From positions 13,658,001-13,722,000 of the forward strand of contig NC_091033.1 of the NCBI RefSeq assembly GCF_041296385.1: a stretch of DNA of 64,000 nt, read 5' to 3'. Made by a program: the position numbers and the translations under genes. Under the pieces are notes generated by a model. That model did not search any database. It had not been told where the DNA came from and was given only the letters and a program-made list of their open reading frames with translations. How positions within the stretch are numbered: position 1 is the stretch's first letter; each line of letters starts with the position of its first letter. Below are positions 1,419 to 36,658 of the stretch, piece by piece. Source of the stretch: Aphelocoma coerulescens (taxonomy: Eukaryota > Chordata > Aves > Passeriformes > Corvidae).

Positions 1419-1523
1419 TTAAGCCAGGAAAAAATCCTCAAAATTATGAATATGGTGAAAAATAAAGAAGTGAGCATTGAAGGAGCTCTGCATTTGGCAC
1501 AGAAGGAGGTGTATGCTGAAAAG
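1419..1523 (+). CDS. PHCF: Formin exon a (first one recognised)
   Basis: The exon follows a long T-rich tract ending in CAG and ends at GTAAGG; it is 105 nt, phase 0 at both ends. It encodes residues 1-35, beginning LSQEKILKIMNMVKNKEV, a charged, probably helical stretch just before the first PH-like fold. A second AG 12 nt downstream could serve as an alternative acceptor that keeps the frame. It has no ATG near its start that clearly serves as initiator, so at least one earlier exon is expected upstream. Confidence 0.75.
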
Positions 1524-4500
1524 GTAAGGCCACTCCTTTGATCTATTTTGTAATACAGTCAGAGGTTCTGGAGAGCCCTGCTGAGATGAGGAGCGTGTCT
1601 GGATTGCTGTCAAGGATACAACCACAGCCTGGGAATCACAGACAGCCCCGTTCATAACCAGACAGGACAGGTATGGCTGGCTGGTGCTGCTGGTGGTGTC
1701 CTGTGTGATGGATATTCCATGGAAATGCTGCAGCTGCACTGGTGGCACTACCTGGATGAAGGAGTTCAAATCCACACAAGGGTTGTTGTTATTCTGAGTG
1801 CTGCATCAAGTACTGGGTTAATAAATGTGGGGCAGAATTGCAGAATCATGGGATGGTTTGGGTTGGAAGGGACCTAAAAGCTCATCTTGTTCCACCTCCC
1901 TGCACCTCCCACTATCCCAGGTTGCTCCAGTGTTCCCATCCAGCCTGGTCTGGAACATTTCCAGGGATGGGGAATCCACAGCTTCTCTTTTCCAGGGCCT
2001 CACCATCCTCATAGTAAAGAATTTCTTTCTCATATTTAATCCAAACCTGCTCTGTGTCAGTGTGAAGCCATTCTCCCTTGTCCTGTAAATCCATGCCCTT
2101 GTGAATGGTCTCTCTCCCCATCCTCGTTAACATGATTAACAAAGGTCAGGAGGATGCTTCCATCTATTTCCATGTGGAATTCTCCTGCAAAGCCTCCGGT
2201 GCTGTTTCTGTTCACAGAGAGAGATTTCACCTGAGAACGGCTGGATTTGGGTGGCCAAATGTTATCCCAGTGTGGGATGTGTGGCTGATTTCTGTTCTGT
2301 TTTCCAGGATCCACAGGATTTGCTAACTGGGTCACAATTTAACTTCATTATCTACAAATACAAACACTACCGCTGGCAGAAACGAATTTTGCAGGTACCT
2401 TTAAAAATCCTCACTTTTGGTGCAGTGTATAAAAATATATTAAAGCAAACTTGTGTTGACAACACCTGATGGTGATTTCCTGCTTCCATGAAGTGAGGGA
2501 CAAAGGTTTCATGGTTTTTTTTTCCTGGAATTCACTAAAGCTTCTTGTAGTTTGGACAAAATTTGATAATGAGCAAGTCCAAGTCATGCATGCTACAGGG
2601 TGGTTTTATCTACAGTGTCTTAACTGTGCAAAATATAATCTCCTTAATTCCATCAATATTCACCACTTTTTGAATGAAAAGATAATTTGTTTAAACATAA
2701 AGTGGAAAAATGGAGAGAGGTGTAGTAGATGTGGAAGTTATCAGTCTGGGAATCCGGATTAGTTTAATTTCAATCCTCCAATTACCAGCAGCCTTCAAAA
2801 GTCAGAGATAATAATGAGAAAAGTTCTGCTTTGGAGGCTTCCTGCCATAGACAGGACAGAGGGAAAGGCCACAGTGTGGGTTGTGTGGTCTGCACAACAA
2901 GTTCTTGACTTAGAATTGTTCTAAACACCTTCACTGCGTTTCAGTGCTGGGGCAGAGATTGAAGGAGGGAGGAATTCAATCTCTGCTGAGGTGGTCCTGT
3001 CATTATTCTGTGCTGAAGGGGAAGTTTCTGTGCTGGCTTTTGTGAGACAAGGAGAATTTCAAAAGAAGTAATATTTCAGAGTGATAAATTGATGCATATT
3101 CATCAAAAGAGAAGTGGAAACACAGCTTCCAAGGAATATCTGTTTGCCTTGTGACTAAAACAAATGTTGGGCAGTATCTCGATGGTGGAATGTCATTTTT
3201 GAATTCTATTTATTCTGTGTTTTATCTAAATACCTTCACGTGGTAATACTGGGATGCTGCCTTTGCCTTTCAACAAAGATGGCCTCAAGTGATGAAGAAT
3301 TTTCTATTGCAGCTGGATTTCAACACCAGGACCATTTTTAACATTGAGAAAGGAATTATTAAGAAGCAGTTCCCTTTCTCCCAAGTCAAAGGCTGCGAGG
3401 ACGCTGAGAGGAGGCGCTTCAGCATCGTGTTCCACGGGAGGCAGGATTACGAGCTGGAGGCTGTGTCCCTTGATGACAAAAGGAAGGTGAGTTTGTGAAA
3501 AACCCCAGACATTGCCATAAATCCCAGCTGGTGGGGTGGTGGCACCCAGCAGGTCTCAGGCACTGCTGGGCATTGTGCAGGCAGGCAAGGAGGGGTGTCT
3601 GTATTCCGTGGGTGTTCGGACACGGAACAAAGGGAATGTGAGCTCAGGAGGAAGTTTGGCCTCAGGATTTTGGCACAGTTCATAGGACTGGGGTGTAAAC
3701 GGAGCTGGAGATGAGATAGGAGAGTGGGGGCAGTTCTGCAGCCACGCCTGGGATGGAACCGCTCTGGGGGTGTTAAAGCAAACAACACTGCTGATGTGCA
3801 CAGCTGAATCCTAATTGGAACTTTCTAAGCACTTTTTGTTCTCTGTATAAGATATTTCTTAAAACGCTCAGTTTTAAGGATGAATGAGGATCGTCCTCAT
3901 GCTGAGAAAAGCCCCAGTGGTTTATCTTTGACCATTGTCTGAGATTTTCAGCTGAATCAATCGAGTGCTGCTTGGGCTTGAACTGAGCTGGACAGAAACT
4001 GTGTCCTAGGCTGCTTTGTATATGAATGAAAAAAGTTGTGTTTTACAGTAACCCCTCCAGAATAAAATTATATTCTCCTTCCACTGCCAGGTTTAGAATT
4101 GTGGGCATAAAACCAAATTGCAGTTAAGTAGTTTAACATCATAGAAAGACCGGAGTTATTTTATGTTGGTTTCTTTTACCTATTTGACTGTGGCTTTGTA
4201 CTTGTAAAATCCAACTATTGATGTGTTATTGAAGGCAATGAACATGGAAAGTATTTTTTCTCTGCTGCCTCTTATTATCCAGATAATCTACCTGCTGAGC
4301 AGAGTCATACAGAGCAATTCTTACAAGAGACCAGGGGAGTCCTGCTCTGGGGGACCTGCAGAATGTGATGTGATCCATGAAGGGCTGCTGGATTTGCAGC
4401 AGAGCACTTCAACCTCCACTAAATGGGTGAAGTATGAACTCTGGCTTTTGTTAAAATTTCTGATAGATGCATTGAGATTTGGATGTGCTGATAATAAGTT

Positions 4501-7500
4501 AATTCTTTAGTTTCTTTTGAAAGTGTAAAGGTAGATGCATTGCAAGGAGCTGTCAGTGCAGTAGTGGCACCCAAAACCCAAAGCTGTGGTGTGATGTGGA
4601 GCCTGCTGGGAGCATTGGCAACAAAAATCTCTAATGGGGACCATGCTCAGAAGAATTTTGCTGCTGGGAATTTGTTTCCCTCTTGACTTTTCTCTCCATT
4701 CTCAGTCATGCAATGGTTTTCCATGTTTGCTCCCTATTCTGCAAACAAACCACCCTTCCCTGAGACAGCTCCTAAAACACCTGGAAATTCTTACACCATC
4801 AAAGGAGAGAAAGAGAGAGGAAAAAAAAATTCTGTCTAGCAAAACCTAATGAAAAAAAATTCACATTGTAATTATCTGCACAAGGCAATTATCTCAAAAG
4901 ACTTCACAGTTCACAGAAAATGATTTTAATTGCCTTTAAAAGGCTACCACTGTATGTCTTGTAAACACTGTCCTCAAGTGTCTCCAGGATTTGTTACCTC
5001 GCAACAGTGAACAGGTTTGTTAACAAACAAAAATTGATTTTTATTTATCTTGTGAAGCAAAGCCCTTGTTGTTTTCTTCTTGATATTAATCCTCTCTCTT
5101 TCTCCTTTTTTTTTTGGCAAAGTAAGTGATGGTGGAAGCATCTGGAGATCCGATTAAACCATAAGTCCCTGCCTTGAAGAGAGAAGAGATCAATATAACT
5201 GCCAGCTCCATTAAGCAATTCTTATCACCTTGACTGTTTGTGTGGGAATAGATGCAATTTATATTTTATGTTTAATTTGTTCTGGAGCAGCTAAACTTAT
5301 TTAAATTCCTCATAGAACGCCTTAATCAACCAGCCACACCTTGAAGAGAGAGTGGAGGGAAAGAGAGGTTTGATAGAACTGCCAGAATGATAAAGAAAGG
5401 CAGAAACCTCCAGAAAAATGAGAAGGCAAATGCTTAAATAAGAATAAAACCCACATACAGTAAAGCCCAGCCTGTAGTTGGACCTTTGTTATAAACAGCA
5501 GGGCAGAATTCCAGAGGAGAGGCTGAAGCAGAGGATTCTGCTGGAATGGAAGCTCTGTATGCTCAGGCAATTTCTTCCAGGGTTAATTATAATTTAAAGA
5601 GCTTTCCCCCAAATTTTTCCACAGTCACTTCTGCTGGAAGCCCTAATGAGTAGAATACTTTGACCCTTTCCTGCCATTCCTGGGAATGAGGGAGCCCAGG
5701 ATGAGTTCCCATGGAGTAACAGGATTTCCAAGAGAGAGGGATATTGGACTGTATGATTGGGAACTAAATTTAATGATTTGTTTATGGCTTGGTGGAGTGA
5801 AACGTGGAAGGCACAGAAACTCTGAAGCCTCATCACGCCATGCACTGCTCAGTCACACAGTGGATTCCTTTAAAAGCTCAGAATCCCAAAGATCCACTGT
5901 CCCAAATAAACAAGAGGAGTAAATGGAGAAGGAGGGACAGAGCATGGCTAAAAAATTATCAGGACTTGGATGATTTTTAATTGATGATCAGATTTTAGTT
6001 TTAGCTCTCACTGGGCTGTTCAGATTTTATGTCACACTTAAAGTGTCAGATGAGAACAAGAAACTCTCAAACAAGAACATCTCAAAGATTTTATGCTTTA
6101 CTATTGATATTTTTGACTGTTCCGTGGAGGATGCTGTAAAAATGTGGAGATTTATTGACACTAGAAAGTGCTTTAACAAGGGCCAGGCTGTGTAAATAAG
6201 AAGTCAATGAAGAATGAGCTGTGTCTCCATCCCTTGTCCTCCAGGTGCTTGGCACAGCTGCGGGAAGGAGAATTGGCTTTGTACTGCCTTGGGCTGGGGC
6301 ACAGGGGCCAGCCTGCAGCCCCTGCCACAGCCACAGTTCCTCTCTTGGCTGGGAATGTGGGTGTCAGTGAGGACGGTGGCTGCAGCACCTTCTCACTGCA
6401 CACCAGAGATCACCATTATCTGTGAGTATAGCTGGTAATTAATAATTTGTTAAAGCAGAATTGCTGCAAACAAGGTCAGACAGCAGAGGGTCTCAGTGTC
6501 CTGGGATAAAATAACAACACTGGAGAAATGAGGCCATCAGAATTATTTAGATTACCCCTCCCATTGCTCTGCAGAGATTTGATGAGGATCTTCTGGAGGA
6601 ATCCAAAGTGGACCTGAGCTGATCCACTGAAATCCTGCCCACAGCAGCTTGTGGAGTTGTCATGTCAGGAGCCAGGGAGGAGATGCCTGGTTCAGCTGCT
6701 GGGACAGATGTGGGCAGGTTCTGAATGCCTGTTACACCCCAGGTGTAGCACACTGCTCCCTCACCAGCGTGGATCACGAGGTCACTGCAGAGCCAACACA
6801 TGGCAGAACCTCAGCTCTCCAACCACAAACACATGAGCAATTAACTCTGCGGAGGTCAGAGCCAGCAGCCCTGGGCTCCTCTGACAAGTGCAGCTGCTGA
6901 ACATCGCTGTGCTCAAACCAGGGATCTCTGTGTTAGGCAGGATGTTGTTTGCACTCCCTGGCGTTTAGAGATGACATTCTTCCATTTCAGGTTCCGGATC
7001 CCCTTCACTGTCCAGAACACCCGGCCAGAGGCTGCTGGCAGGCTGCAGAGTGAGTGGGTGTCTCTCCTGGAAAGGCACTGCCAGCCGGGCAGCGGTGCCT
7101 CCCTGCCTCAGGAGGGCTCTCAAGGATGCAGCTCCCCCGAAGCTGATTATGAGGAATTTATTGTGCCTCTGAATGAGCAGAAAGAGGACCCCCCTCACTT
7201 GGGTGGGAGTTCTGCAAGCAGCAGCCTGAGCAAGCCTGCAGTGCCCCCGGCCAAGGCTGCAGAGGGGGAGGCAGCCCCAGCAGCCCCAGCAGCAGCTCTG
7301 CCACCTCCCATGGGCAGGGCAGAGGTTCCACCAGCCCCACCTGCCCTCCCACAGCCCTGCAGCCTCTCTCCAGCAGCAAAGAGAACCAAAGCCTTTCACT
7401 GGGATGTCGTTCCTTGTGACAAGGTGAGGATGAAACTGATGGTAGCTGTTAAAGGAAAGAAACTTCAATATTGTAGCCTGTATGACACGGATAGGTATAA

Positions 7501-10500
7501 AAATCCAGCTGTGCCACAAAACGACCTGGACGCCCTTCTCCGGGTTTGGATGGAACAAAGGGCCTCTGTTCTTCTGGCTTTTTGTTTACCCAGTGTCCTT
7601 CCTGTATTTTTAGATTCAAAAATCTGTCTGGGGATCATGTGACACATGCAAGAGAAAAATAGATGTATGCAGGCTCTGTGAGCAGTTCCAGATCCAGGAC
7701 ACGGCAGTGCTCTTGGGCAGTGAGCCCTCAATGAATCAGCACATCCTGCTGGATCGGAAAGTTGCACATAACTTCAGTAAGTGGATAACAAGGGCTGTGT
7801 GCTCCTCTCTGGAAGCCTGGGCTGAGCTCTGCCTGCATTTGCTATTTGTGCTTTCTGCCATTCCATAGGCAGTAATCAAGGCTGTGTGTAAATCATCTTT
7901 TAATTCAGTGCTTCTCTCTTTACAAAAAATGACCCCGTGGCTCAGTTGCTCCAAACATGGTCCTTGATGCTGTAGAGATGAATCCCCAGGCTGCTTCTCT
8001 TCTACAAAACCTGGAAGTGCCATTGAGCTGTGATGCTGCTGTCTTGGGGCAGAAGTGTAAAATCATCCCTGACATGTGCAAAATCAATTTCAGCCTCTGA
8101 CTTCAAAGACTTTTCAAATTTTGTGGGCTGCAGAGTCAGCAGGAGCCGGTTGGGAGGCAGAACTGTGACTGCTGTGCTGCACTGGGGTCAAGAAATCCCT
8201 GTAGGGGGAGGTGGGTTGGTGTGAGGAGTCTTTGGGGCAGCTCCAGGGCAGGCACAGGAATTCTTGGCTTTTCCCTGGCCACGGGCTCAGGCTGTGAACA
8301 GGATCCTGTTCTTGAACAGAGCCCTCTGCTCTCATAGCTCAGGTGGGATTCTACCAAAAGCCTGACTTAGAACTGCCTGGCAGAGCTAATGGAGCAGTTC
8401 AACACCCAGTCCTGGTCTTCCTAATAAAATACTGTGAAGGTCTTTCAATTCCTCTGATGAGAAGATATTAAAGGAGCAGGAGTAATTGTTCTTCACAGAG
8501 TAGTGGGATTTCTGTTACGAAAATGGATTTCCAAAAAATTTCTATAACCTAGAGATGCTTTTAAGAAGTGTTCCATGTGTAAGGAATTTGGGGCAGTCAA
8601 TACTGAAGTTTTAATGATTTCATCTTGATGAATGTTAATAAGAAAAAATGTATTTTGGAGAGCGTGTAAAGTTTTAATTGGGAAATGTAAATGGACATAA
8701 CTTGGAATTATTGCATCCCTTGACTAACAATTTGAAGGGTTAAAAGGAAGAGTGATGGCAAAGTGCTGTTGCAGATAAAAGAATCTTGTAATAGCACTTT
8801 TATCTACTGAATTATTCCAGTTTCTTTGAGGAAATGTCTTTCTTTTGCTTTGCAAATTGCACCATTCCTCCTTTTGATCCTGTTCCTCTTACAACTGTTT
8901 TTCACTGGGACGTTCTACATCCGTTTCTTAATCTTATCCTCGTCAGTGAGAGTTTTGGCATATCCTTATTATAATGGACATGACTTAGATCAAAAGTTAA
9001 TTTGATCCTGAGAATTCTGATTAATCTTCCTGCAAGTGCTGCAAACCGTGGCCCTTAAATTAAGGAATAAAAAGATGAAGCTCCAAAATGCCAGGAGGTT
9101 AAAAATTCTGGAGATTTTGAGTGGAGTTATGAACACCAGAGGAAAATGAGAGTTCTGAGAGATCTCCACACTAAATTCAAGAGCAATATAGGAGAAAATA
9201 CAAATAAAAGCTAAGTTCTCTAAAGGATTCTTGTTGAAAAAAGAAATTTCTGCCACACAGGGAGCAAGTATCAGTAAGAGACCAGAAAATCATCCTCAGA
9301 TTTCTTTTTCCTTGACTACTGGCTATGTAAATTTAAAGAAAATATGAAGACTGAGTTTTTGCTTTAGGATACCAACTGCTGAATATTTTGGCATTTTTTT
9401 CCTCTTTGGTTGGGGTTTTTCTTCTTTCTTTTTAAAATCTGCTAAGTTCAGATGAGATATTTTGGTGATTTTCCTTCCCTTGAGCATTTCCTTCCAAGTA
9501 ACCCAAGAATCCTTTTTCTCCAGACATTTTTCTTAAAAGTTTCCGTATAAAACCGAGTGAGCTGAAGGAAAAACTGTACATCATCCACGAGGAGAGTGGT
9601 GGGCTTACAGATGAGCAGATTACAGCACTGAGAAGGTAACTTTGGGGGGAATTGTTTGGTTTTGGGACCTTTTGGAGAAGGCAGAATCTTCTGCAAATGA
9701 TGTGGAGTTTGGAAAGGTGGTTTGGAGAGGAGGAAGGCAGACAAGTGTTAAAGGAGCTTCATGGGATGATGGGATATTGGGAATATTTGTGTGCCTGAGT
9801 GGCAGAGATTTGGGGGTTTAAAGCAGAGTGCAGATTTCTGTGGCTTGAACAAAACTGAACAGATTTCAGGAATTTGAGCAAACTATTGGTGTGTGAAATT
9901 CACAGGAACTGGATTTTATCTTTTTGGGTAGTTTGAGATGCAGAAAGAAAGGAAAGAAGTGGGATCCTAGAGCGGGATCTGTTCCACATCCCAGCTCCCA
10001 TGTAACACTTGGGCCATTTTAATAAACATTTTTACATGTGAAAGCTTGATGTGAAACTGTTTCTTGCCTCAAAATGAGAAAAAAAGGAGTGTTTTGCTAA
10101 AGAAAACTGGGAAAAAGAAGGCACTGACAGAAAAGTGAGGAAGTAAATAATTGATGCTTCTGCTTCTCATGGAATCTGTTTAATTTGGGCCTTAACATCC
10201 TGATCTGAAACAGAATTTTGAACTCTTCAGGGTCATGTCTGTACTTGGGAAGTGATGTGAGCAGGAAGAACATGGAATTAATGTCATTCTGTGGGATGGC
10301 TTCTGGAGGATGAAGGGCTGTGGGCAGGATGCTGGGTATTTAAATGTTTTTTATGTTCTGGAGGGTGTTTCCTTGCTGCCCCAAGGCTCTCCCAGTTAAA
10401 CCCCACACTGGTGCACATGAATTAGGATCTGGTGGAAGGTGCATGGCCCTGCTGAGGGGGCTGCTCAAAATCTGACCCTAAAGCCTCAATGAAAACAGAA

Positions 10501-13500
10501 ATATCTTATTGCAGTGCTGGAATTGGGCAGGAAATAACTGCAGGGAACAGTTGGACATCGAGGTGCTCTCCAGTGACGTGAGGCTGTTTCTGGAAAGGCA
10601 AAGGGAAGGAGATTTCTCCAGCCCCATTTCCCAGGGCATCCCCTGCTCCCACCTTGGTTCAAAGGGAAGCACTGACCCCACTCTGCCACTCAGGATTCAC
10701 TCCTGACGCTGCAGACTCAGCCCAGGATCTCCAGGCTGCTGGAATTGCTGTGGCATCACTGATTTATGGCATCTGGGCTCTTTGCCATCAGACAATAATA
10801 ATAATAATGATGGCAATGGAGCTTGAAATACCACATTTTTTTCCTTGAAGTCTCTCTTTGAGGGCAATAATGCTGAGGGAATATTCCCAGCAGTGGAATG
10901 AGGAAGGGATGCTGATTGTTGTGTTGCTCAGTGTTATATATTTTCAAGGATTCGAACGATGGTACGTGGCTTCAATGATTCTGTCCCTGGGATCATTATT
11001 TAGTGCCAAAATCGAGGAATCCATGGGCAAATCTTGCACTGAAAGGAAGATGTTTCTTTTTCCACCCCAAGAGGTTTGAGTGTGACTGAAACAGTTGAGA
11101 TGCATCTCAAAATGAAGGCTTGGATTCCCAAGGCAGTGGAAAATCAAAGGAGCAGACAGAAATTCTCTTGGAGCATCACCACTCCCACGTTGCTCTGGTG
11201 CAGTGCTCTGTGGTGGATTTGTCATGACACAAGGAGGACACTCAGCACTTCTGGAGACCTTTCCACTCCATTTGGGAGTCGCAGTGAAAAATTTGACCTT
11301 TGAGAGCTGTGGCCTCCAGCTACCTGAGACCCCATGGGCAGAACAGGAGCTCAAACAGGACAGTCCAGGGCTGGAAAATTCCTCTCAGTGCAAACCATAC
11401 CTGTCAGAGTGTCTGAGCCAGGGCAGAAGGTCTGAATCCTACTACTGTAGAATAAAAATACTTAAAGTCAACCCCAAAATTCCATTTTCAAGGCTGCCAC
11501 TGGGGAGCAGAGTGTCCTGCTCATGTATCCAGTGGAAGTGGTGGGATGTCATTGGGAACTTCAGGACTGAATTTGATATGGAAACCTCTTCAGCATTCCC
11601 TGAATGATTCTTTATCCTCATGTCTTAATAACAAAGCACTCCATGTCTCTCTAAGCTTTCTTTCTTTCTAAAGAAATGGGAGTCTTTTTCATTGTACAGA
11701 TTCCATTAGAGCTGCATTCATGTAAAAAGATATTTATGGAGTGCATTCCCATGTTTGTGTGCCTCCTTTCTCAGGGCTCCCATTGTTTAATGCTTTAAGC
11801 TTTAAACCTTCCAGATAATCTGTTAGTTCCATTTTCTATGCATAATGCAGCTGAACAATTTTATGGGGTATCAGACTTCTGCTTAAATGAAGATGTTTGC
11901 TGTCACCTTTTAAAATACCTTCTGTGAATTTGCTTAAAAACTCAAGCTATTTTTAATGATGAATAAGTACCCTTTCATTTGCCAACAGCTAACTTATTTT
12001 TAAATGAGAATTCATTTTTTTTTCCTGATGGTAAAGTGGGCTGAAAGGATTACATTGTAATCTGCTTTAACACAGGTGGAGTAATGCAAAGCCACCAGTT
12101 TTTCAATTGAAATGTTATATTAATTATTGACAACAGTAAAATAAATCTTACTCTTTGTCCTGTGTTTAACGTGCTAAAATATTTGCTTTTTCCCATCTTT
12201 GAGTACATTTCCTGACTTTGAATGGAAATGTATTGCTATGGCCATGAATGTTTAATCACTCTTGCTGCAAATTTAGAAGGTTTTTTGAAGAGAAAGAAAA
12301 GAGAGTAGACCTGAATACTTATTTCAGCTTCTTTACACTCCTCATATGTGAGCTCTGACATCGATTGCATTTTTCTTAAGAAATGCTGCGAATTCCCCCA
12401 GTGATGGCTCAGACAGGCAGGAAGATCTCCAAAGGAAGGGAGCTGTGGGGCTGTGTTTGTTTTTCCAAGTGAAGGCATATTTGAAGACATCCATTTTCTA
12501 AAAATCTGTGGCCCTGGAGGATATTCTGTGACCTTGTACAGAGGGGAGGAAGTTGTGGCTCTGTGTTCTGTGCTGTCACTATTGAAACAAGTAAAAAACC
12601 CTGTGAAAATCAGGGTCAAGAAGGGAAACACTCCCAGGGTGGGGTTGCTGGGGTGTCTGTGCAGGGCCAGGATGGAATGGATGATCCTTGTGGGTTCCTT
12701 CCTGCTCACATTATTCTGTGATATCAGAGATAAGAAATGGATCCAACCTCTTTGCAAATCAGGGCCTGAACTCCTCTGTCTCATGGTTTTGCCTTTCTGA
12801 AATATTCTGTCATTCTAAATTATCTGTACAGCTGCAGGTGAACATTTTGGCTATTATTTTCCTTGTGTACAAATCAGCATTTCCAGGTACCCAGAGGTAT
12901 CTGCAGATCACTTTTGCTTTCCATCTCACAGCTGGTTCAAATACCTACTAAGGATAAATATGAAACACATAAACCACAATATGTAGGAAATTCCAGTGCA
13001 AGGAATGGAGTTTCATCAGAATACAGAATGAAGAGGAAGAGGACATCTAATTTTCCTTTTCTCTTCACAGATATTTGCCCACACCAAAAGATGCAGAAAG
13101 GTACTTGTCCTTCAAGGGGTCATGCTCAGAGCTGCACATGGTTGACCAGTTTATGTTAGAGGTAAGGAGTTTCAACATTAAAAGATACCACATCCTATTT
13201 TTAGGACATTCTCCAAGCTAAAACCACCACAAGAAGCTGTTGATTAGAAGTTAAATTTACAGTCTCACCCAGAATCAGCATAGGAGGACTATTCTGATGA
13301 AGAGTTGAGACAGGTAGATAATAAAAAGAGAATTATGGATCCCTTTGTGTCTCCAAGTCACACTCCCTCCTCTTCCTCCAGAGTAGGAGCTGATTTATTC
13401 TGAGCTAGATTCCCAAAATCTATAAAATTATATGTGTTTAACTATTTTTGCTCACAAGGAAGGATTGCAATTGATTTTAAGAATGTGTGCCCTAGGAGCA

Positions 13501-16500
13501 GACAGTGAATTTGCAGTATGTGCCAGAGTGTACCCACAGGATTAGACCCAGAATAAAATGAGTAAATGAGCACAGAAATTAGGAAAACAATGGCACAGCT
13601 GAATTGCTCAATAAATAATGAAATGTTTGTATGTTTTGGTGTAAATGTGAGTTCTGATTGCTGTTCTGTTCAATTCTGAGCAGATGTGTAAAATCCCTCA
13701 GCTGGGCCAGAGGTTGGATCTCCTGCTCAGTGTCCGTGAGCTCCCCGAGAGCATCAGAGATCTGGAGCCTGTGAGTAACAGGAGCCCTCATGGCATCTTT
13801 GTGATCAACCTCTGTCAGTTTGATAAGAGAGGCCTAGGTCACCTCAGCACAGATTTCAAAAATTTGTAGCTGTGGAGGATTATTTTGGGGTTTTTTTCCT
13901 TTATTTTCCATACGTGCATTTAATATCATCCTTATTCCACCAACGTTCACAATAATGGGCCTGGCAGTAGAATAGACTTCCAAAAAAGAGGGAGAAAAGA
14001 ACAGGAAAAGATCTTCAAAATTTTCTTTGGTGCTGTAAAGCTTTCCTTCTTCTTTGGGCAGTGATAAGACAGAAGTGAATTCCACCATTAAAATTCAATT
14101 CCCTTGTGGGGAGGTTCCTGCCCCATGAGCTGAACGAATCAATCTAAGACATGGAGGAAGTTTGTTTGACAAATCTCAGAGAGATTTAATATTTCCTGAA
14201 GACTGAAGGAGCTGTTCCCTCTAAGGATTACAGCTCTGGACTGAAACTTTTGGGAATCAGAGCTCAAGTCCCTCTCTGCCTTTCCCCAGGATGACCTTAG
14301 GGTGGGGGATGCAAATAAACCAGTGCCAGTCTCATGACTGGATCCTGCTGTGCCAAGCCATGCCTTACCTGCCAGGTTTTGCCCATGCTTTGATTCAAAA
14401 CAAGGATTTCCACACCATGAAAATGTTTCAGAGGTTTTGCTGTCCTTCTGCATGGGAATGAGAACAGAATGTGAAAGTTCTGCAGGACCAAGTTGTTGTC
14501 CTTTGTCTGGCTGTGATTAAAACCATAGTAACAGTGAGGAAAGCTCAGAAGAGGAACAGATGGAAAGCACAGGGGAGATGCAGAGATTCCTGACCCTGCC
14601 TGCTGCAGCTACACCTTTGCTGTGCTCCACTTAAGCCAGATACTGAATATTTGGAAGCTATTTTCTGCACTGTTTGCTTTGATGGATATTAAATGGTCAC
14701 TGAAGAGCTAATTAGTGTCTAAGTATGTTCTTATGCACACTAATGCCTATGTTTAAACCACAGAATATACACCTAAAATCCTATGGGACACTGTGAATAT
14801 TGGCTGTCAGCATCCTCTGGCCTGAGCTGTGCTGTAAATGCTTTAACAACAGCTTTCAGCTCTCCCATGTGCTTCTTCCTCTCCCTGTTTTTAAATTGGT
14901 GTGTTGGTGACTGCTGAAAAGAGGTGTGGTGCTAAAAACCCCAAATTTTCTGAGAACAAAATCACGTCTTGTGCCTAAAGCTCTAGATGGGAGGTGGCTT
15001 TCCTGGGAAAAATGAATTATACTGAGTTTGAGTACAGGAAATGATTATTCTTCCTTATGGGGAAACTGTGCTAAGAATTTTGATAACAGCATTGAGCTGG
15101 TGTAAAGAGAAGGGAGGGAGGTGAAGGATGGAGCTCCAGACTCTGCTTCCGCTGATCCCTGAAATTTGGGCAACCAAAGAGCAAAACACTTTTTGTGCCC
15201 AGGAGGCTGAAGCTGGTTTGGCAGCCAGAAAGGATGTAGCTCCTTTTTGGGGTGACTGTGCCAACACAGCGTGGTCTTGGGGGAGTTTGAGCTGGTCCTT
15301 GCTGAAAATCCCTGAGGGATTTGCATAGGGAGGTATCCTTGGGCTAGGGAGTGGCTTCAGGTGGGGACAGTGAGGGCTGGCACAGGGAAGGCACAGACAC
15401 CACGGATTGCCCACATTTTCAATCTATCTGAGGGCAGGTTTGTGCATTTCAGCTGATAATCCAGAAAATCCAAGCAAGCAAGCAGCTGCAATCCAGCCAA
15501 AAGTTTGTTGCTGTCTTGGAGTACATTTTAGCCATGGGGAACCATCTGAATGAAAAAGCTGGAAAAGAGCTGGCTAAAGGATTCCGATTGTCATCTCTGG
15601 CCAAAGTGAGTACATATTTGCTTGTAATTAAAATCATCACATTCTAAGGTTTGTTAGCCATTAATATTAACTCTGAATGTGGAGCGAGGCAATAATTCCT
15701 AACGAGGAGCCAACATTTTACCACCTGCCCTTGGTTCCACAAAAACAAAGTCCTGTTTAACAATGGATTCTTTCATTCTGTGATAAGAAGCTGTGTTGCC
15801 CCATTTCAGGCAGCTGCACTGGCTTTGTGGTGCTGAATGCACTGTGTCTCTAGTGAGGTAGAACATCAGAATTCTGCCTGCCCTGATATTAAAATCCCTT
15901 GGCAGGAGGAATTGTCTGAGCTGCAGGCCCTGCTTAGGCACAGTTTAGATAAAGTGCATTTTGCAGTTTTGTTGAATGGACCCTTCTCACTTCCCTGTGC
16001 TCAGAGGATGGACCTGGGCATTTCTTCTGCAGTGGCCACTCTCCTGTGGCCCTGCAGCAATTTCTGAGTGCTTCATTTCACTCCAGTGCAACTCATCCAG
16101 CCCTGGGGCCAAGCACAGGGAGGAGCTGGAGCTGCTGGAGAGAGCCCAGAGGAGGCTCCAGGATGAGCAGAGGGATGGAGCAGCTCTGCTGGGAGGAAAG
16201 GCTGGGAGAGCTGGGATTGCTCACCTGGAGAGGAGAAGCTTTGGGGTGAGCTCACTGAAGGAGCTGCAGGAAAGATAGAGAGAGAGGATTTCCAAGGGAT
16301 TGAGGGACAGGACAAGGGGGAATGGCTTCCCACTGATAGGGAGGAGGTTTAGATGGGATATTGGGGTGAAATTCCTCCCTGTGATGGTGGGAAGGCCCTG
16401 GCACAGGGTGCCCAGAGAAGCTTTGCTCTCTCTGTGAACACAGCACAGTGATTCTAAGGGGAAAGGAAAAATGACTGTGTTTGCTTTGGGGGGCCGAAAT

Positions 16501-19500
16501 CACTTGCAATCAATTAGGGTACCTGAAGTTTAAAAAGACCTGTGGGAATAAGAAGACGCCAAAGAACAGGGAAGGTCAGGGGATATGAATCAGAAATGTG
16601 AGTGAAACAGCAAAATGAAGAGGAGGAGTTTAATTCCGTTGTTTTCTCTTCTTGCTAAATATAGCTGGGATCTCTCAGCATCTCTGCTGTTCCTTTTTCG
16701 TGTTTTATTTATTTGTTTAAGGTATGATAGCTCAGTGTGTCAATCATTGCTCTGCTCTGTTGCAGCTGCCTCTGCTGAGGGGGAAGGAGAGGACGTTCAC
16801 CTTGCTCCATGCCCTTGTGGAACAGATCCTCTTACACGAGCCCGAGCTGGCCACGTTTCCTCAGGAGCTGACAGAATTTGAAGCTGTTCCTGATGGTGAG
16901 AGAAGGCAGGGGGGAAAATAATCAACAAATAAGAAATTAAGTCCTTCAACTTCCATGCAAACTCCCATCCTGACTGTATAAATGATATTTATTATCATGT
17001 TTTTTCCCCTCTCTCTTCCCTTCCAGCATCCATGAAGGGCCTCAGTGCTGAAGTTGATGGTATGTAAATGTAGTTTCTACATTCAGAGACAGATTTTCAT
17101 GTGCTGTGCAGTCATTTGGAACAGGTTTTCACTGCACCTCTGTAGTTTATAAAGAGAGTTAAAGGTTGAAAACATTGAGGTGAAGTGTTGCCATGGTGAT
17201 GCTTAACCTGCCATGTTGCTGTGAAGAGTTTTAGAAAAAAAAAGAGATATTGAAGTGTGTCCAGGTGGTTTAGAAATGTAAAAAATATGTACTGCCCATG
17301 GTAAATAGAGTTTATCATAAAATACAAAAGTTAAGTGGCACAAGTGCTCCATCACAGTGAAGGCTATGACAGTCTCTGGGAATTGGGAGTGGGAATGCAG
17401 CAGGAGAAAACTTCCTGGAGTTCAAGAACTTCCTGGAACCAAACTGGTTTCCTTCTCTAGAAGGAACTCCAGCACCAGTGAAGTCATCTGGAAGCACAGA
17501 CCAAGGTTGTTCAAATGTAAGATGGATTTTGGGGAGATGGATTTTGGAAGATGCATTTCCAACTCCCCATGGAGCAGTGTCATAACCTGTGAGCTCAGTG
17601 GCTTTTAGACTGAACCCTTTGAGAGCTGATAGAGGCATGTGAGTGGGTGGAAATGATGTGTATTTTGTTGAAATTTATAAAAATCTGTGTTTTGAAGGTG
17701 TGCATGGCTGTTGGCTGCGACTGCAGACCAGTATTCCCAGTTTCAGCCTTTGATAACAGATCTCCATGCTGGTCACTCTCAGCTGGGGTTTGGCAAACCC
17801 CTGCATCCCTTGGGGGCCCTGGGGTCAGCTTTGGGAGTAGCTCGAGGCTCCTTTGGTGTGTTTTGTCCTGCTCCAAGAAATTCCAATCACCTTTTAGGAG
17901 ACATAAGGGACTAAATGTAACAATATTTACCTTCAGTCACTGGTGGTCTGCAGGGGCAATTCAAAATCATGGAATATTTTGCAGACAGTTTTGGAAAGTG
18001 CTGGGCAAAGCTGCAAAATGGGCACAGACCCAGGAACTGCAGGGAGAGGTCCAAAGAGGTGACTCAGGGGAACCAGATGAGACTGACTGGGCTCTTCCCT
18101 CCGTGGATTCCTGATGTGCCCAGGGCAGAGAGGAAGGAGATGCACCAAAATCCAGGGAACCAGCTTTTCTCAGTTCAAGGCACATCCTGGAGCTCGGTGC
18201 TGCAGGAACTGCCCGAGCACAGGGGAGGGAGATGCCAGAGGAGCCCCCAGAGCCCAGGCTGTGTCCTCTGTCCCCCCTTTCCCAGCAGGAGAGCTCCCAG
18301 GGAAGCAGCCCGGTGCCAGCTGACAAGAATTCTTACTGTTCCATAGAGGAGGATTTCTGCTCTTTTATCTTTGAAGGAACCCAGAGCTTCCTACAGAGAA
18401 ATGTGGGTTTGAAGAACATTATTTCCATGGCTAATCCAGTGCTCAGGCTGGGGAAGGTCAGATTCATGGCTGCTGCTTTACCACGTCCTCTCCCTCTGTG
18501 TTATCCTGCAGTTGCTGGGATGTGAGCACATTTTTGCCATGAAAAAATGCTTCTTTCAGGAGCTCTACCTCAAACCAGGAAGTGAATACTCCTAGATAAA
18601 TGTATTGTAGACCCATATTCTCTTAGATTTTCCTTGTGCCCTAAATCAGACAATTGCAGCCCTTTGGACACCTCTTCATGCTGCTGAAATTCCTCATTTT
18701 CTTTCTCTTCTGTTAGTTTTAAAAAAAGAATTGGAGAACATTATCCAGGGCAGGAGGCTCATTAAACCCAAAGCAAGCAAGACAACACCCCAGGAGTCCC
18801 AGTTCTGCAAGGAACTCAAGGTAACTCTACCACACCCTTCTCGTGGGCTGGAGTAAGGGATGAGTAACCTGGGAGTTTGTGCTGACACCTGGGAATCAGG
18901 ATGATTTGAGGGAAAGTGGCTTTTTATTCCCTTCTGGGAATGTCTCCTGTTGTAATTTGCAGCATGGGAAGGGTTTTCAGGGTTTCTGCACCTCCTGCTT
19001 TTCCTTCCCAGGTGAATGGATGAGGAACAGGCAGCCCCACAGCTGCCCACAACAACTGCTTTGGGATAATAGGGATTTTAGAGTGAATTTGTTATCATTT
19101 CTTCTGCCTCCAGAGAGGAGAGAAGAGAGCGGAGATCTGAGAATCACAGAATGGGTTGGAAGGGGCCTTAAAGATCATCCAGTTCCACCCCTGCCATGGA
19201 ACACAGAACCATAAAATCCTTTAGGTTGGAAAAGCCCTTTAAGAGCACTGAATTCAAACCCAGCACAACTAATCCCCATCCCCAAATGCCACATCCCCCT
19301 TCTTCTGAATCCCTCCAGGGATGAGGCCTCCAGCACTGCCCTGGGCAGCTGTGCCAGGGCTGGAAAACCTTTTTGGTGAAGAAATTCTTCCTGAAATCCA
19401 ACCCAAAGCTCCCCTGGGGCAGCGTGAGGGCTGATGGCAGCTCAGGTGTCCCCACCACGTCCATCTCTGCTGTCCCACACATCTTTGTGCTCCCAGGTGC

Positions 19501-21014
19501 TTCTTCCATAGACATTAAGTTGTTGAAAATGTGGGTGTTACAAACAAAACGAAATTAAGAGATTTCATTTCCAGACTTGTTTCTAAGGCCCTGTTCTGCC
19601 CTTTAAGGACCTGGAGCTTGGCAGTGTTTGCTGCACGTGCAAAAAGGCCGAACGTGCTGGAAATCAGGACCTTGTGATGTTATCTGGCCCTGCCACTTTT
19701 AAGGGATTTAGGTTTTGTCATTTTAGAATACAGTTAAAATTCTCTAGAGTTAATGTTTCTTTTTTTTCTTGTCTTTGATGTCTTAATGGTTGCAAGGAGA
19801 TGTGTGTGCTGCTCTTTTGTGAAATGTGAAATTTTCATGACATGAAAATTTCGTCTTGAATGATCTTGTTTTCGCTGCTGTTTAATTCCTGCTTTAATGG
19901 TGTGCTCCTACAGCAAATTAAATTTATTTTATTACAGGATTTAATTCAGAAATATGAAGGGGATCTCTCCCAGCTGTCAAAAAGATGTGATGAAATGAAG
20001 AAGCTTTATAGCAACGTACTGGTACATATCATATTAAAATGCAATGAAAATAAAGCTACATTTCTTTTTAAAAGAGGAGGAAAGGAGTGGAAAGGAGCGC
20101 AAGAAATTCCCACTTGCTTTATATTTATACTGGCTGTAGAAACAGAAAGAAAATCCCATATTTAACAGTCAGAGATCTCAAGGAAAGGGACAGAAATGCA
20201 GTGATAACCTCTGAAACTGGAAAAATCCTGGATTAGGACATGACTTTAAGTGGTGGTGGTGGTTTTTTGGTGTTTTTTTTAACTTCTCCTATTTTATTTT
20301 GTGATGGGGGAAGGATTAGAAGCAGAGAGCTTTAATGACAAGCAAATGTCACCTAGAAGATGCAGCCCAGGAGGACCTTTGGGGACCTGCCTGAGCAGAC
20401 ACTGAAGATTAATGAGATGTTTGACCATGGAAATTTAATTACAAACGTTCCACTAAAAGTAATATTTTCAAAAAGGCTCCAGGGTTTCTTTGTGGCTCCT
20501 GCAAACAGGAACAGTGCCTCAGTGTGGGGCAGCAAGCTGGCTTTGGGTGCAGCACATAAACAAAGGACTCTGTCCCCAAAAAGATTGAGAAAGCAAGAAG
20601 AAAAATGTGGGACAATGAGAGAATTAACAACTGAGTTGCATGAGTGGAAATGGGTGGGGAAAACTGAACAGATTTAGATGTGGGGAGCCTTGTGCTGCGG
20701 GGAGAACACTTCTGGAGTGGGGTACAGCCAAAAATCACCTGTTTCTCCTGGAAGCCCTGCTCAGGATGGGGTGCTGGGGGTGGCAGCTCCTGCTGCAGAG
20801 CTGAGGGGTGCCCAGGCAGTGCTGGGGTCCCCTCGTGCCTGCTCTGGCCCTGCCCTGCTCCTCCTCCTCCTCCTCCTCTGCTAAATATTCTTGTATTTCT
20901 GATTCCCAGGTCAGGTTTGGGGAGGCACCAGACCTGGACTCGCAGGAGCTCTTTGGATGGATATCTTCCTTCATCAGGGAGTTCAGGAAGGCCTGTGCTG
21001 AAGTCACACCATAA
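1419..21014 (+). CDS. PHCF: PH-domain-containing formin (PHCF-type), 16 coding exons, 5' end not found
   Basis: Sixteen exons with GT-AG borders and matching phases join into 2187 nt, giving 728 residues plus TAA. Residue numbers here count from the first exon seen. Layout: helical segment 1-35; PH-like fold 1 about 45-133; PH-like fold 2 about 157-260; Ala/Pro-rich FH1-like linker about 312-353; FH2 about 361-725. FH2 hallmarks are KAFHWDVVP near 364-372 and GNHLN at 555-559. Formin FH2 dimers nucleate actin filaments and ride their growing barbed ends; PH domains often bind phosphoinositides, so membrane-linked actin assembly is an inference. There is no GBD/FH3, DID, DAD or WH2 region in what can be seen, unlike diaphanous-type formins. 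The class assignment rests on the PH-PH-FH1-FH2 order; FHDC-type and inverted formins are less likely. The initiator exon is missing, so full length is unknown. PHCF is a family name, not an approved symbol. Confidence 0.87.
1841..2125 (-). mobile_element. CR1 LINE fragment in formin intron, antisense
   Basis: The reverse complement matches the 3' part of avian CR1. On the + strand it begins with the complement of the terminal repeat (AGAATCATGGGATGG), then 'ggttggaagggacct', 'cttccatccagcctgg'-like and 'agtaaagaatttctt'-like blocks, ending near 'ccttgtgaatggtctctctcc'. About 285 bp, truncated at its 5' side as most CR1 copies are. Confidence 0.85.
2308..2394 (+). CDS. PHCF: Formin exon b (start of PH-like fold 1)
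   Basis: Acceptor TTTTCCAG and donor GTACCT bound an 87-nt exon, phase 0 at both ends. It encodes residues 36-64, ending YKYKHYRWQKRILQ, the basic first strands of a PH-like fold, which run on directly into the next exon. Confidence 0.85.
3313..3486 (+). CDS. PHCF: Formin exon c (PH-like fold 1)
   Basis: The 174-nt exon runs from TTGCAG to GTGAGT, phase 0 at both ends, and encodes residues 65-122. Alternating strands (LDFNTRTIFNIEKG, RRFSIVFHGRQDYELEAVS) have the beta-sandwich pattern of a PH domain core. GC content rises sharply against the flanking introns. Confidence 0.9.
4283..4431 (+). CDS. PHCF: Formin exon d (end of PH-like fold 1, start of fold 2)
   Basis: The 149-nt exon starts in phase 0 and ends two bases into a codon. 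It carries the C-terminal helix of the first fold (IIYLLSRVIQSN) and the opening strand of a second PH domain (GLLDLQQ...KWVK). I chose the donor GTATGA because it rebuilds KWVKCLAQLREGELALY across the junction, the usual PH pattern. The nearby GTGAAG donor would break the frame. Confidence 0.8.
6245..6421 (+). CDS. PHCF: Formin exon e (PH-like fold 2)
   Basis: The 177-nt exon has acceptor TCCTCCAG and donor GTGAGT; it starts with the last base of a split codon and ends with two bases of the next. It encodes residues 173-230, including LREGELALYCLG and, after a Pro/Ala/Gly loop, STFSLHTRDHHYL, the strands of a second PH fold. Confidence 0.87.
6991..7423 (+). CDS. PHCF: Formin exon f (end of PH-like fold 2, FH1-like linker, FH2 start)
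   Basis: This is the largest exon (433 nt), bounded by TTTCAG and GTGAGG. It completes the second PH fold with its C-terminal helix (RLQSEWVSLLERHC), then an acidic patch (EADYEEFIVPL) and a Ser/Ala/Pro-rich stretch with only short proline runs (LPPPMG, VPPAPPALPQP). It ends with the FH2 opening KRTKAFHWDVVPCDK. Reading continues open for more than 200 nt into the intron, but FH2 homology resumes only in the next exon. Confidence 0.92.
7614..7776 (+). CDS. PHCF: Formin exon g (FH2, lasso and linker part)
   Basis: The 163-nt exon lies between ATTTTTAG and GTAAGT, starting in phase 0 and ending one base into a codon. It continues FH2 with IQKSVWGSCDTCKRKID, then the CEQFQ...AVLLG segment and LLDRKVAHN. 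This matches the part after FHWDVVP in other FH2 domains, where a tryptophan lies shortly downstream. Confidence 0.88.
9524..9635 (+). CDS. PHCF: Formin exon h (FH2 core)
   Basis: The 112-nt exon has acceptor TTTCTCCAG and donor GTAACT and splits a codon at each side. It reads IFLKSFRIKPSELKEKLY followed by GGLTDEQITALR, the FH2 region of the 'N-I-x-L-x-x-f-r' and 'L-x-x-e-x-i-x-x-L' helices. The following intron of 3.4 kb is the largest in the gene as seen here. Confidence 0.92.
10793..10812. repeat. Short (AAT)n microsatellite
   Basis: About five imperfect AAT units lie inside the formin intron between exons h and i. Confidence 0.7.
13071..13161 (+). CDS. PHCF: Formin exon i (FH2 core)
   Basis: The 91-nt exon between CTTCACAG and GTAAGG completes an Arg codon from the previous exon and ends in phase 0. 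It encodes YLPTPKDAERYLSFKG and DQFMLE, the FH2 segment 'L-P-t-x-x-E' through the helix that carries F/L pairs before the 'I-P-x-L-x-x-R-L' motif of the next exon. Confidence 0.92.
13684..13770 (+). CDS. PHCF: Formin exon j (FH2 core)
   Basis: The 87-nt exon is phase 0 at both ends, with TGAGCAG before it and GTGAGT after it. It encodes MCKIPQLGQRLDLLLSVREL..., the FH2 'I-P-x-L-x-x-R-L' helix. The ATG at its first codon is an ordinary internal Met. Confidence 0.92.
15453..15605 (+). CDS. PHCF: Formin exon k (FH2 signature GNHLN)
   Basis: The 153-nt exon is phase 0 at both ends, bounded by CATTTCAG and GTGAGT. It encodes the most diagnostic FH2 block: FVAVLEYILAMGNHLNEKAG, then GFRLSSLAK. The G-N-x-x-N motif is at residues 555-559 of the partial protein and identifies FH2 with high confidence. 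Confidence 0.95.
16090..16430 (+). mobile_element. CR1 LINE fragment in formin intron, sense
   Basis: It contains the CR1 blocks 'gatggagcagctctgctggg', 'aggctgggagagctggg', 'gggacaggacaaggggg', 'gatattgggg..aaattcc' and 'ctggcacagggtgcccagag'. It lacks the 3' terminal repeat, so it is truncated at both ends. It sits between formin exons k and l. Confidence 0.88.
16766..16895 (+). CDS. PHCF: Formin exon l (FH2)
   Basis: The 130-nt exon from TTGCAG to GTGAGA starts in phase 0 and ends one base into a codon. It gives LPLLRGKERTFTLLHALVEQ, matching the FH2 'D-t-K-s-x-d-n-k-t-t-L-L-h-y-l-v' block, though the usual D-x-K-S is replaced by RGKER. It continues LATFPQELTEFEAV, the next conserved helix. 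Confidence 0.92.
17027..17059 (+). CDS. PHCF: Formin exon m, 33-nt microexon (FH2)
   Basis: A strong acceptor (CCCTTCCAG) and a donor (GTATGT) bound 33 nt that complete a split Ala codon, encode SMKGLSAEVD, and end one base into the next codon. FH2 domains have a comparable 'S-l-e-x-l-x-x-d-v' segment here. Without this exon the flanking exons still join in frame, so it could be skipped with loss of 11 residues. Confidence 0.88.
18717..18820 (+). CDS. PHCF: Formin exon n (FH2, long helix)
   Basis: The 104-nt exon follows TTCTGTTAG and ends at GTAACT in phase 0. It encodes VLKKELENIIQGRRLIKPKA and then a polar stretch ending FCKELK. This fits the 'L-x-x-e-l-x-x-i-x-x-g' helix of FH2 and the loop that precedes its last coiled-coil helix. 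Confidence 0.9.
19137..19500 (-). mobile_element. Two abutting CR1 3' ends in formin intron, antisense
   Basis: At 19137-19200 a short CR1 3' end reads 'aatcacagaatgggttggaa...ccttaaagatcatc'. Straight after it, at 19201-19500, a second one begins again with 'aaccataaaatcctttaggttgg' and runs through 'ccagggatgaggcctccag', 'gggcagctgtgccagggctgg' and 'agaaattcttcctgaaatcc'. The two starts 60 bp apart indicate two separate insertions, one into or beside the other. Confidence 0.82.
19938..20021 (+). CDS. PHCF: Formin exon o (FH2, C-terminal coiled coil)
   Basis: The 84-nt exon, phase 0 at both ends, is bounded by TTATTACAG and GTACAT. It encodes DLIQKYEGDLSQLSKRCDEM and KKLYSNVL, the charged coiled-coil helix in the C-terminal quarter of FH2. 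Confidence 0.9.
20910..21014 (+). CDS. PHCF: Formin exon p (last coding exon)
   Basis: The 105-nt exon follows GATTCCCAG and ends in TAA. It encodes VRFGEAPDLDSQELFGWISS and FIREFRKACAEVTP, matching the final FH2 block 'y-f-G-e-d-p...e-f-f-x-x-l-x-x-F-x-x-x-f-x-x-A'. Only a few residues follow FH2, so the protein has no C-terminal regulatory tail. Confidence 0.93.
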   Translation, partial: VRFGEAPDLDSQELFGWISSFIREFRKACAEVTP

Positions 21015-21560
21015 GAACACAAATTTTACGGAGAGCTGAGGGAAAGAGGAGTCCAGGAAACAACCTTTGGTTGTTTTTTTCTTTACTAATAAGTAGCACA
21101 TTGGCAGCATCTCACCTGTGCTGCAGAACACCTCGATTTTGAGAGACAGTTGGTTTATAATGTGGAATTTTTAAGTGGTGTTTAACCTGTAATATCACAG
21201 ATCACTTATGACCCTCTCAATTTTGTGCTTTTTTTCCCTTGAGATCTCTATATATTGAGAAAAGAAAAACACTTTTGACCTTTTATAATTTCTCTTTTCA
21301 GTCTTTTCCTTTGAATACCCTGGCTTCTGAGGCAGTTTTAATATTTTCAAGGAATAACAATCTGTGTGGTGATCTAATTTCTAAATAATATTTTGCATGT
21401 TTTATGATGAAATGGGGAGCTGTTACCCACAGAGGAGAATATTTAAACAAATTCTTGTTTATTTTGCTATTAAAACATTGCACTCTTAGTATGTAATGAA
21501 GAAAGTTTTTGGCTGAGTGTTTTATTTTGCCCAGTCCCCCTTAAGTAGGACAATAAAATA
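21015..21560 (+). other. PHCF: Formin 3' UTR with candidate poly(A) signals
   Basis: AT-rich sequence follows the stop codon. An ATTAAA lies at 21469-21474 and an AATAAA at 21552-21557. The second is followed by a GT-rich stretch (21580-21600), the usual arrangement around a cleavage site, so it is the better candidate. The end was chosen from these signals only. Confidence 0.55.

Positions 21561-31920: not shown

Positions 31921-36658
<4,738 letters not shown>

What the first reader, a model, noticed from the sequence alone, without database searches (positions are those of the whole stretch)
1419..21014. A formin with two N-terminal PH-like folds, apparently the PHCF class lost in humans
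Sixteen exons assemble cleanly in frame into PH-PH-linker-FH2. Human formins with FH2 carry GBD/FH3, PDZ or other modules at the N terminus; none that I recall has tandem PH domains there. I recall a metazoan class called PHCF whose human copy decayed. An intact avian copy would be a little-studied actin nucleator, probably recruited to membranes by lipid binding.
Basis: partly seen in the sequence, partly recalled or inferred. Interest (0 to 1): 0.78.

Follow-up and report, generated by a model that had tools for sequence, protein, structure and literature searches.

The report
Bird formin class that humans lost
This bird gene encodes an intact protein of a known actin-assembling class (PH-domain formins) that placental mammals have lost; the class is published, but what the protein does appears not to have been studied.

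Summary
Sixteen exons (window 1419-21014, + strand) join in frame, 16 of 16 acceptors AG and 15 of 15 internal donors GT, giving 728 codons and a stop. The start exon lies 7.6 kb left of the window. The protein matches predicted jay and crow proteins at 97-99%. FH2 is unmistakable (Pfam 233.8 bits). Two orthologues fold as two seven-strand PH domains; the full-length one also has a disordered linker and helical FH2. The gene lies between MC3R and CBLN4, where Pruyne (2016, PMC5047451) placed PHCF in birds and marsupials: a known class at a known locus, filed under misleading names. Two details I did not find in print: 0 of 52 bird proteins scored have a proline run of four or more before FH2, against 13 of 13 turtle ones; and five predicted isoforms lack one in-frame FH2 core exon. 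Five paper searches showed no functional study.

The parts
1419..1523 (+). exon with most of a helical hairpin (residues 1-35 of the 728 in the window)
   Evidence: AG|..|GT, phase 0; helices in AF2 models of orthologues
2308..2394 (+). exon: start of PH1 (KYKHYRWQKRILQ)
   Evidence: K64, K72, R73 of P0001 invariant in 52 of 52 aligned
3313..3486 (+). exon: PH1 middle
4283..4431 (+). exon: PH1 C-terminal helix and start of PH2
   Evidence: donor chosen by comparison with P0001
6245..6421 (+). exon: PH2 middle
6991..7423 (+). exon: end of PH2, disordered linker, minimal FH1-like VPPAPPALPQP, start of FH2 (KRTKAFHWD)
7614..7776 (+). exon: FH2, N-terminal part
9524..9635 (+). exon: FH2, NIFLKSF helix (actin-contact site by recall)
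13071..13161 (+). exon: FH2
13684..13770 (+). exon: FH2
15453..15605 (+). exon 11 of the window: FH2 core (GNHLNEKAG); in-frame exon missing from five predicted isoforms of relatives
   Evidence: the only PHCF place in the Pfam FH2 scan of the genome (lower bound)
16766..16895 (+). exon: FH2
17027..17059 (+). micro-exon: FH2 (33 bases)
   Evidence: same residues in P0001
18717..18820 (+). exon: FH2 C-terminal helices
19938..20021 (+). exon: FH2 C-terminal helices
20910..21014 (+). last exon with stop TAA
   Evidence: first AATAAA downstream at 21552
32230..36500 (+). neighbour gene CBLN4: coding exons from 32230 to about 32496, 33841-33957, and one starting at 36461 that runs past what I read; synteny marker
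   Evidence: gene name recalled from its sequence, no database search made

Best explanation
The gene is the intact avian orthologue of PHCF, the pleckstrin-homology-domain-containing formin. Order: a short helical hairpin, PH1, PH2, a fast-evolving disordered linker, a very short proline motif (VPPAPPA) and FH2. Most likely mechanism: the PH tandem, above all the strongly conserved basic strand of PH1, places the protein on a phosphoinositide-bearing membrane, and a head-to-tail FH2 dimer nucleates filaments or rides barbed ends there. In birds it would draw little profilin-actin because its FH1 is minimal. Shown: gene structure, domain order, orthology, conservation, predicted folds. Inferred: lipid binding, dimerisation, barbed-end activity, weak profilin use. 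The confidence below is for identity and intactness together with an FH2-on-membrane role in outline; for the mechanism in detail I would say 0.55.
Against: No function was tested. Pfam does not call PH in the window protein, and PF00169 reaches E <= 1 in only 22 of 58 relatives. PH1 has a very short first loop and Q where PIP3-binding PHs (recalled motif) have K, so lipid binding is uncertain. The site that I match to the mDia1 lysine is R in 46 of 52 and Q, C, W, T, A or V once each in the other 6. The AF2 models have modest overall scores (mean pLDDT 69 and 67, pTM 0.42 and 0.40) and are of orthologues, not of the window's own translation.
Confidence: 0.85

Rival explanations
1. A delphilin, FHDC/INF or DAAM formin with an unusual N terminus, as database names (delphilin-like, DAAM1-A-like) suggest.
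For: Names given by sources.
Against: The FH2 tree puts PHCF apart from GRID2IP, INF2/FHDC1, DAAM, DIAPH, FMN, FMNL and FHOD exons of the same genome with 100% support; no PDZ, GBD or DID hit at E <= 1; those types have loci of their own in the genome (type labels recalled).
Confidence: 0.02
2. A membrane-bound FH2 that no longer works as a profilin-fed elongator: in birds it caps, bundles or nucleates without profilin, because FH1 has decayed.
For: 0 of 52 bird proteins scored have a proline run of 4 or more, against 13 of 13 turtle, 2 of 3 crocodilian, 7 of 11 amphibian and 34 of 53 fish proteins; also 0 of 8 lepidosaur and 0 of 4 marsupial ones.
Against: VPPAPPA is kept in the bird sequences of A1, P362 is invariant in 52 of 52 and P361 is kept in 50 of 52, so a profilin- or SH3-binding motif may survive; 19 of 53 fish proteins lack such a run too; run length is a crude proxy.
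Confidence: 0.3
3. A gene on the way to loss, intact by eye but no longer important, as in placentals.
For: Lost in placentals (PMC5047451); PH2 and linker change fast in birds; the four marsupial protein models found are incomplete.
Against: FH2 88% and PH1 89% identical between crow and other birds while the linker is at 53%; no stop or frameshift in 728 codons.
Confidence: 0.05

Closest known systems
PHCF (pleckstrin homology domain-containing formin) of chordates, Pruyne 2016 PMC5047451
   Same: Two N-terminal PH folds and no C-terminal PH (as stated for chordates), proline-poor FH1 (opossum has none), FH2, locus between MC3R and CBLN4
   Different: Nothing that defines the class. [quoted passage not shown] one search also lists turtle, crocodilian, lizard, amphibian and shark proteins (their loci were not examined)
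Choanoflagellate, filasterean and sponge PHCFs (passages of PMC5628938 and PMC5047451)
   Same: PH-PH-FH1-FH2 core
   Different: They add a C-terminal PH, and choanoflagellates a PDZ; not compared by sequence here
mDia1 and DAAM1 FH2
   Same: FH2 fold; the isoleucine that I recall as an actin contact
   Different: 20-26% identity in Foldseek alignments; window protein has no GBD/DID/DAD hit; the recalled lysine site is R
Centaurin-alpha-1 and FARP1/2 tandem PH proteins
   Different: 9-18% identity; rmsd 9.5 A says that the two PHs are placed differently or that their placing is not predicted

Membership tests
PHCF | FH2 domain | tested here: met
   Pfam FH2 233.8 bits, cut-off 34.8
PHCF | tandem N-terminal PH folds | tested here: met
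PHCF | FH2 apart from the other animal subtypes | tested here: met
   Partial-FH2 ML tree, split 100%; subtype labels of the other formins recalled from motifs; no MWHF sequence included
PHCF | no GBD, DID, DAD or PDZ | tested here: met
   No such Pfam hit at E <= 1; short DAD/WH2 motifs were not sought otherwise
PHCF | vertebrate locus between MC3R and CBLN4 | tested here: met
   MC3R-like ORF at G000:C21:13635602 (-), CBLN4-like exons in the window; gene names recalled
PHCF | kin in opossum, none in placentals | tested here: met
   A search with wombat residues 1-420 lists all its 109 matches: 4 marsupials including Monodelphis LOC103097295, no placental and no monotreme name; the search covers only proteins of 0.55-1.75 times the length sharing exact words; whether LOC103097295 is Pruyne's opossum record was not checked
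GRID2IP/delphilin | PDZ domains and delphilin-type FH2 | tested here: not met
INF/FHDC | FH2 grouping with INF2/FHDC1 | tested here: not met
   INF2+FHDC1 group without PHCF at 98% and 97%
actin-nucleating formin | nucleation or processive barbed-end elongation | not testable with these tools
   needs purified protein
phosphoinositide-binding PH protein | binding of PIP head groups | not testable with these tools
   only fold and conserved basic residues seen

The most novel reading that the evidence does not exclude
In birds, lizards and marsupials, perhaps separately, PHCF has given up the long proline tracts that feed profilin-actin, and a phase-0 exon (window 15453-15605) carrying the GNxxN core of FH2 is skipped in some transcripts. 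The gene would then make two membrane proteins: an FH2 that nucleates or caps with little profilin, and an FH2-dead PH-PH partner that could poison the dimer. Such drift would also explain why placentals could lose it.
Probability: 0.2. Interest if true: 0.55.

Novelty: already known. Interest (0 to 1): 0.36.

Why it matters
PHCF is a formin subtype found in all holozoan groups examined in PMC5628938, yet missing from placentals and, by PMC5047451, from the ecdysozoan line of arthropods and nematodes, so the usual models cannot show what it does. The vertebrates that keep it keep PH1 and FH2 well conserved. A clean gene model with the start exon and both PH domains makes knock-out in chicken or zebrafish, localisation, and lipid and actin assays direct. 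Database names hide it: relatives are called delphilin, DAAM1-A, diaphanous homolog 1, formin-F, -H, -I and formin-like 6, 13 or 17.

Tried and rejected
My first splice model (722 aa) was replaced by the 728-residue join after seeing P0001. Pfam for PH: not called in the window protein. SHOCT-like PF22746 on the N-terminal hairpin: 31 of 58 relatives at E <= 1, best 7.8e-5; of ten proteins looked at one by one, six had it, all under its cut-off, and four, shark and crow among them, did not at E <= 0.5 (the 7.8e-5 member was not among the ten), so I name it only as a hairpin. Rfam: 0 matches at gathering score in the window. The bacterial promoter/terminator scan is not meaningful here. Papers: five searches on this class (one search listed 20 of 455, mostly unrelated uses of the letters) showed two papers on PHCF: PMC5047451 (outline and abstract, section 12 in full, passages) and PMC5628938 (listing, passages); a third hit (PMC4580576, listing only) names a formin-F-like gene in a sea-urchin map. 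No functional study was seen; subscription papers are not held. One search looked for the mDia1 mutants (listing only). Copy number: the protein search of the own genome did not complete; the Pfam FH2 scan shows one PHCF place, a lower bound. Monotremes: none among 109 matches, not pursued. Foldseek and VIA lists are filled by single PH domains; absence of other families there says nothing.

Full report
What is there. The window is G000:C21:13658001-13722000 of a 1.33-Gb assembly. Sixteen exons on the + strand between 1419 and 21014 join in one frame; all 16 acceptors are AG, all 15 internal donors GT, and the last exon ends in TAA; 728 residues. I first joined exons 4 and 5 by another in-frame pair of sites; the crow protein P0001 agrees with the longer join. 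The first coding exon is outside the window: ATG at G000:C21:13650375, MDNTRTPDTFSQ, then GTAAAG, phase 0. The jay protein P0002 has the same residues, preceded by MNKLHFAALYDTDETNRISPD, which the genome also reads upstream.

Relatives. P0001 of Corvus moneduloides matches at 712 of 735 columns; P0002 of Cyanocitta cristata at 669 of 677 aligned residues, with a 51-residue gap that is one missing exon. The 120 best of 282 matches come from birds, turtles, crocodilians, lizards, amphibians, lungfish, coelacanth, ray-finned fishes and a shark, under names such as delphilin-like, DAAM1-A-like, diaphanous homolog and formin-F, -H or -I. A search with wombat residues 1-420 listed all of its 109 matches: four marsupials, no placental or monotreme name. 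P0025, a 759-residue protein closest to New World quails (91%) with 60 member sequences, lies on a 2,747-base contig; since the gene is about 20 kb long in the window, this looks like a spliced transcript, unless it is a retrocopy. That the source tag 'lgn' stands for assembled read archives is my recollection.

FH2 tree. I took FH2 exons of other formins of the same genome, labelled by recalled motifs as DIAPH (2), DAAM (2), FHOD (2), FMNL (3), FMN (2), GRID2IP (1), INF2 (1) and FHDC1 (2), with ten PHCFs, 89-231 residues each. In the ML tree (LG+G, 1000 ultrafast bootstraps) all 15 others are separated from all ten PHCFs at 100%; INF2+FHDC1 group at 97-98%; GRID2IP does not join PHCF (the second run drops two residues that I had wrongly typed into INF2). 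Limits: partial sequences, long branches, deeper order among subtypes weak (50-76%), and an unresolved order inside PHCF.

Locus. An MC3R-like receptor ORF lies at G000:C21:13635602 on the - strand, and CBLN4-like exons lie in the window from 32230; both names are recalled from the sequences. PMC5047451 (section 12 read in full) places PHCF genes of coelacanth, birds and marsupials between MC3R and CBLN4, has zebra finch, flycatcher and chicken in its synteny figure legend, and reports six blocks of broken homology in human. This is that gene.

How it may work. In 52 aligned vertebrate proteins PH1 keeps K64, K72 and R73 in 52 of 52, and FH2 keeps I445 in 52 of 52; R601 is R in 46 of 52 and six different other residues in the rest. 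I recall I445 and R601 as matching mDia1 I845 and K994, which I did not check residue by residue. W382 and W395 are invariant; I recall them as the lasso tryptophans of FH2 dimers. By domain the all-pairs identity is 66% for PH1, 47% for PH2, 24% for the linker and 70% for FH2. From this I infer a membrane-placed FH2 dimer.

Two details that I did not find in print. First, FH1: I counted the longest proline run in the 120 residues before the motif T[KR]x[FL][HY]W in all 155 proteins fetched; 144 could be scored. Runs of four or more: birds 0 of 52 (7 unscored), turtles 13 of 13 (2 unscored), crocodilians 2 of 3, lepidosaurs 0 of 8, marsupials 0 of 4, amphibians 7 of 11 (1 unscored), fishes including lungfish, coelacanth and shark 34 of 53 (1 unscored). 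Groups were assigned by me from species names, four unnamed proteins by similarity; several proteins of one species are counted apart, and relatedness is not corrected for. The opossum case is in PMC5047451; the avian one I did not find. Against erosion to nothing: VPPAPPA is kept in the bird rows. Second, splicing: among 154 proteins compared with the window, five lack exactly exon 11 (jay, three parrots, one turtle) and the wombat lacks 10 and 11; but four lack exactly exon 5, four exactly the short exon 13, and others other exons, many of them partial models. It is a lead, not a result.

Verdict. Class, avian presence, locus and placental loss are published, so this is already known; the interest lies in an unstudied conserved formin with a clean model and in the FH1 pattern.

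Noticed in passing
G000:C7:59226902 and G000:C7:59255175 (L034, L035): Two FHDC1-like FH2 genes or pieces about 28 kb apart with very similar exons (GDADGFKISTLLKLTETKANQ / GDAGGFKISALLKLTETKANQ): perhaps a tandem duplicate of FHDC1 in this bird, or an assembly duplicate.
   Followed up: no
window 15453-15605: In-frame FH2 core exon missing in five predicted isoforms (jay, three parrots, one turtle) and, with exon 10, in wombat.
   Followed up: partly
window 1419-1523; P0112 residues 1-90: Conserved N-terminal helical hairpin not mentioned in the passages of the PHCF papers that I read; by eye it seems to occur twice in the white shark. Sub-threshold likeness to SHOCT-like PF22746 in many relatives, not in the shark.
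   Followed up: partly
window about 1840-2110 and 19140-19560: Stretches that look like CR1 retrotransposon pieces in the introns (recalled consensus, not searched).
   Followed up: no
P0122, P0123, P0142, P0144: All four marsupial PHCF models found lack different parts, so they may be mis-modelled, alternatively spliced or decaying; none was checked on DNA.
   Followed up: partly
G000:C21:13565581 (-): 520-aa open frame with LYDVPP-type repeats left of MC3R, CASS4-like by recall.
   Followed up: no
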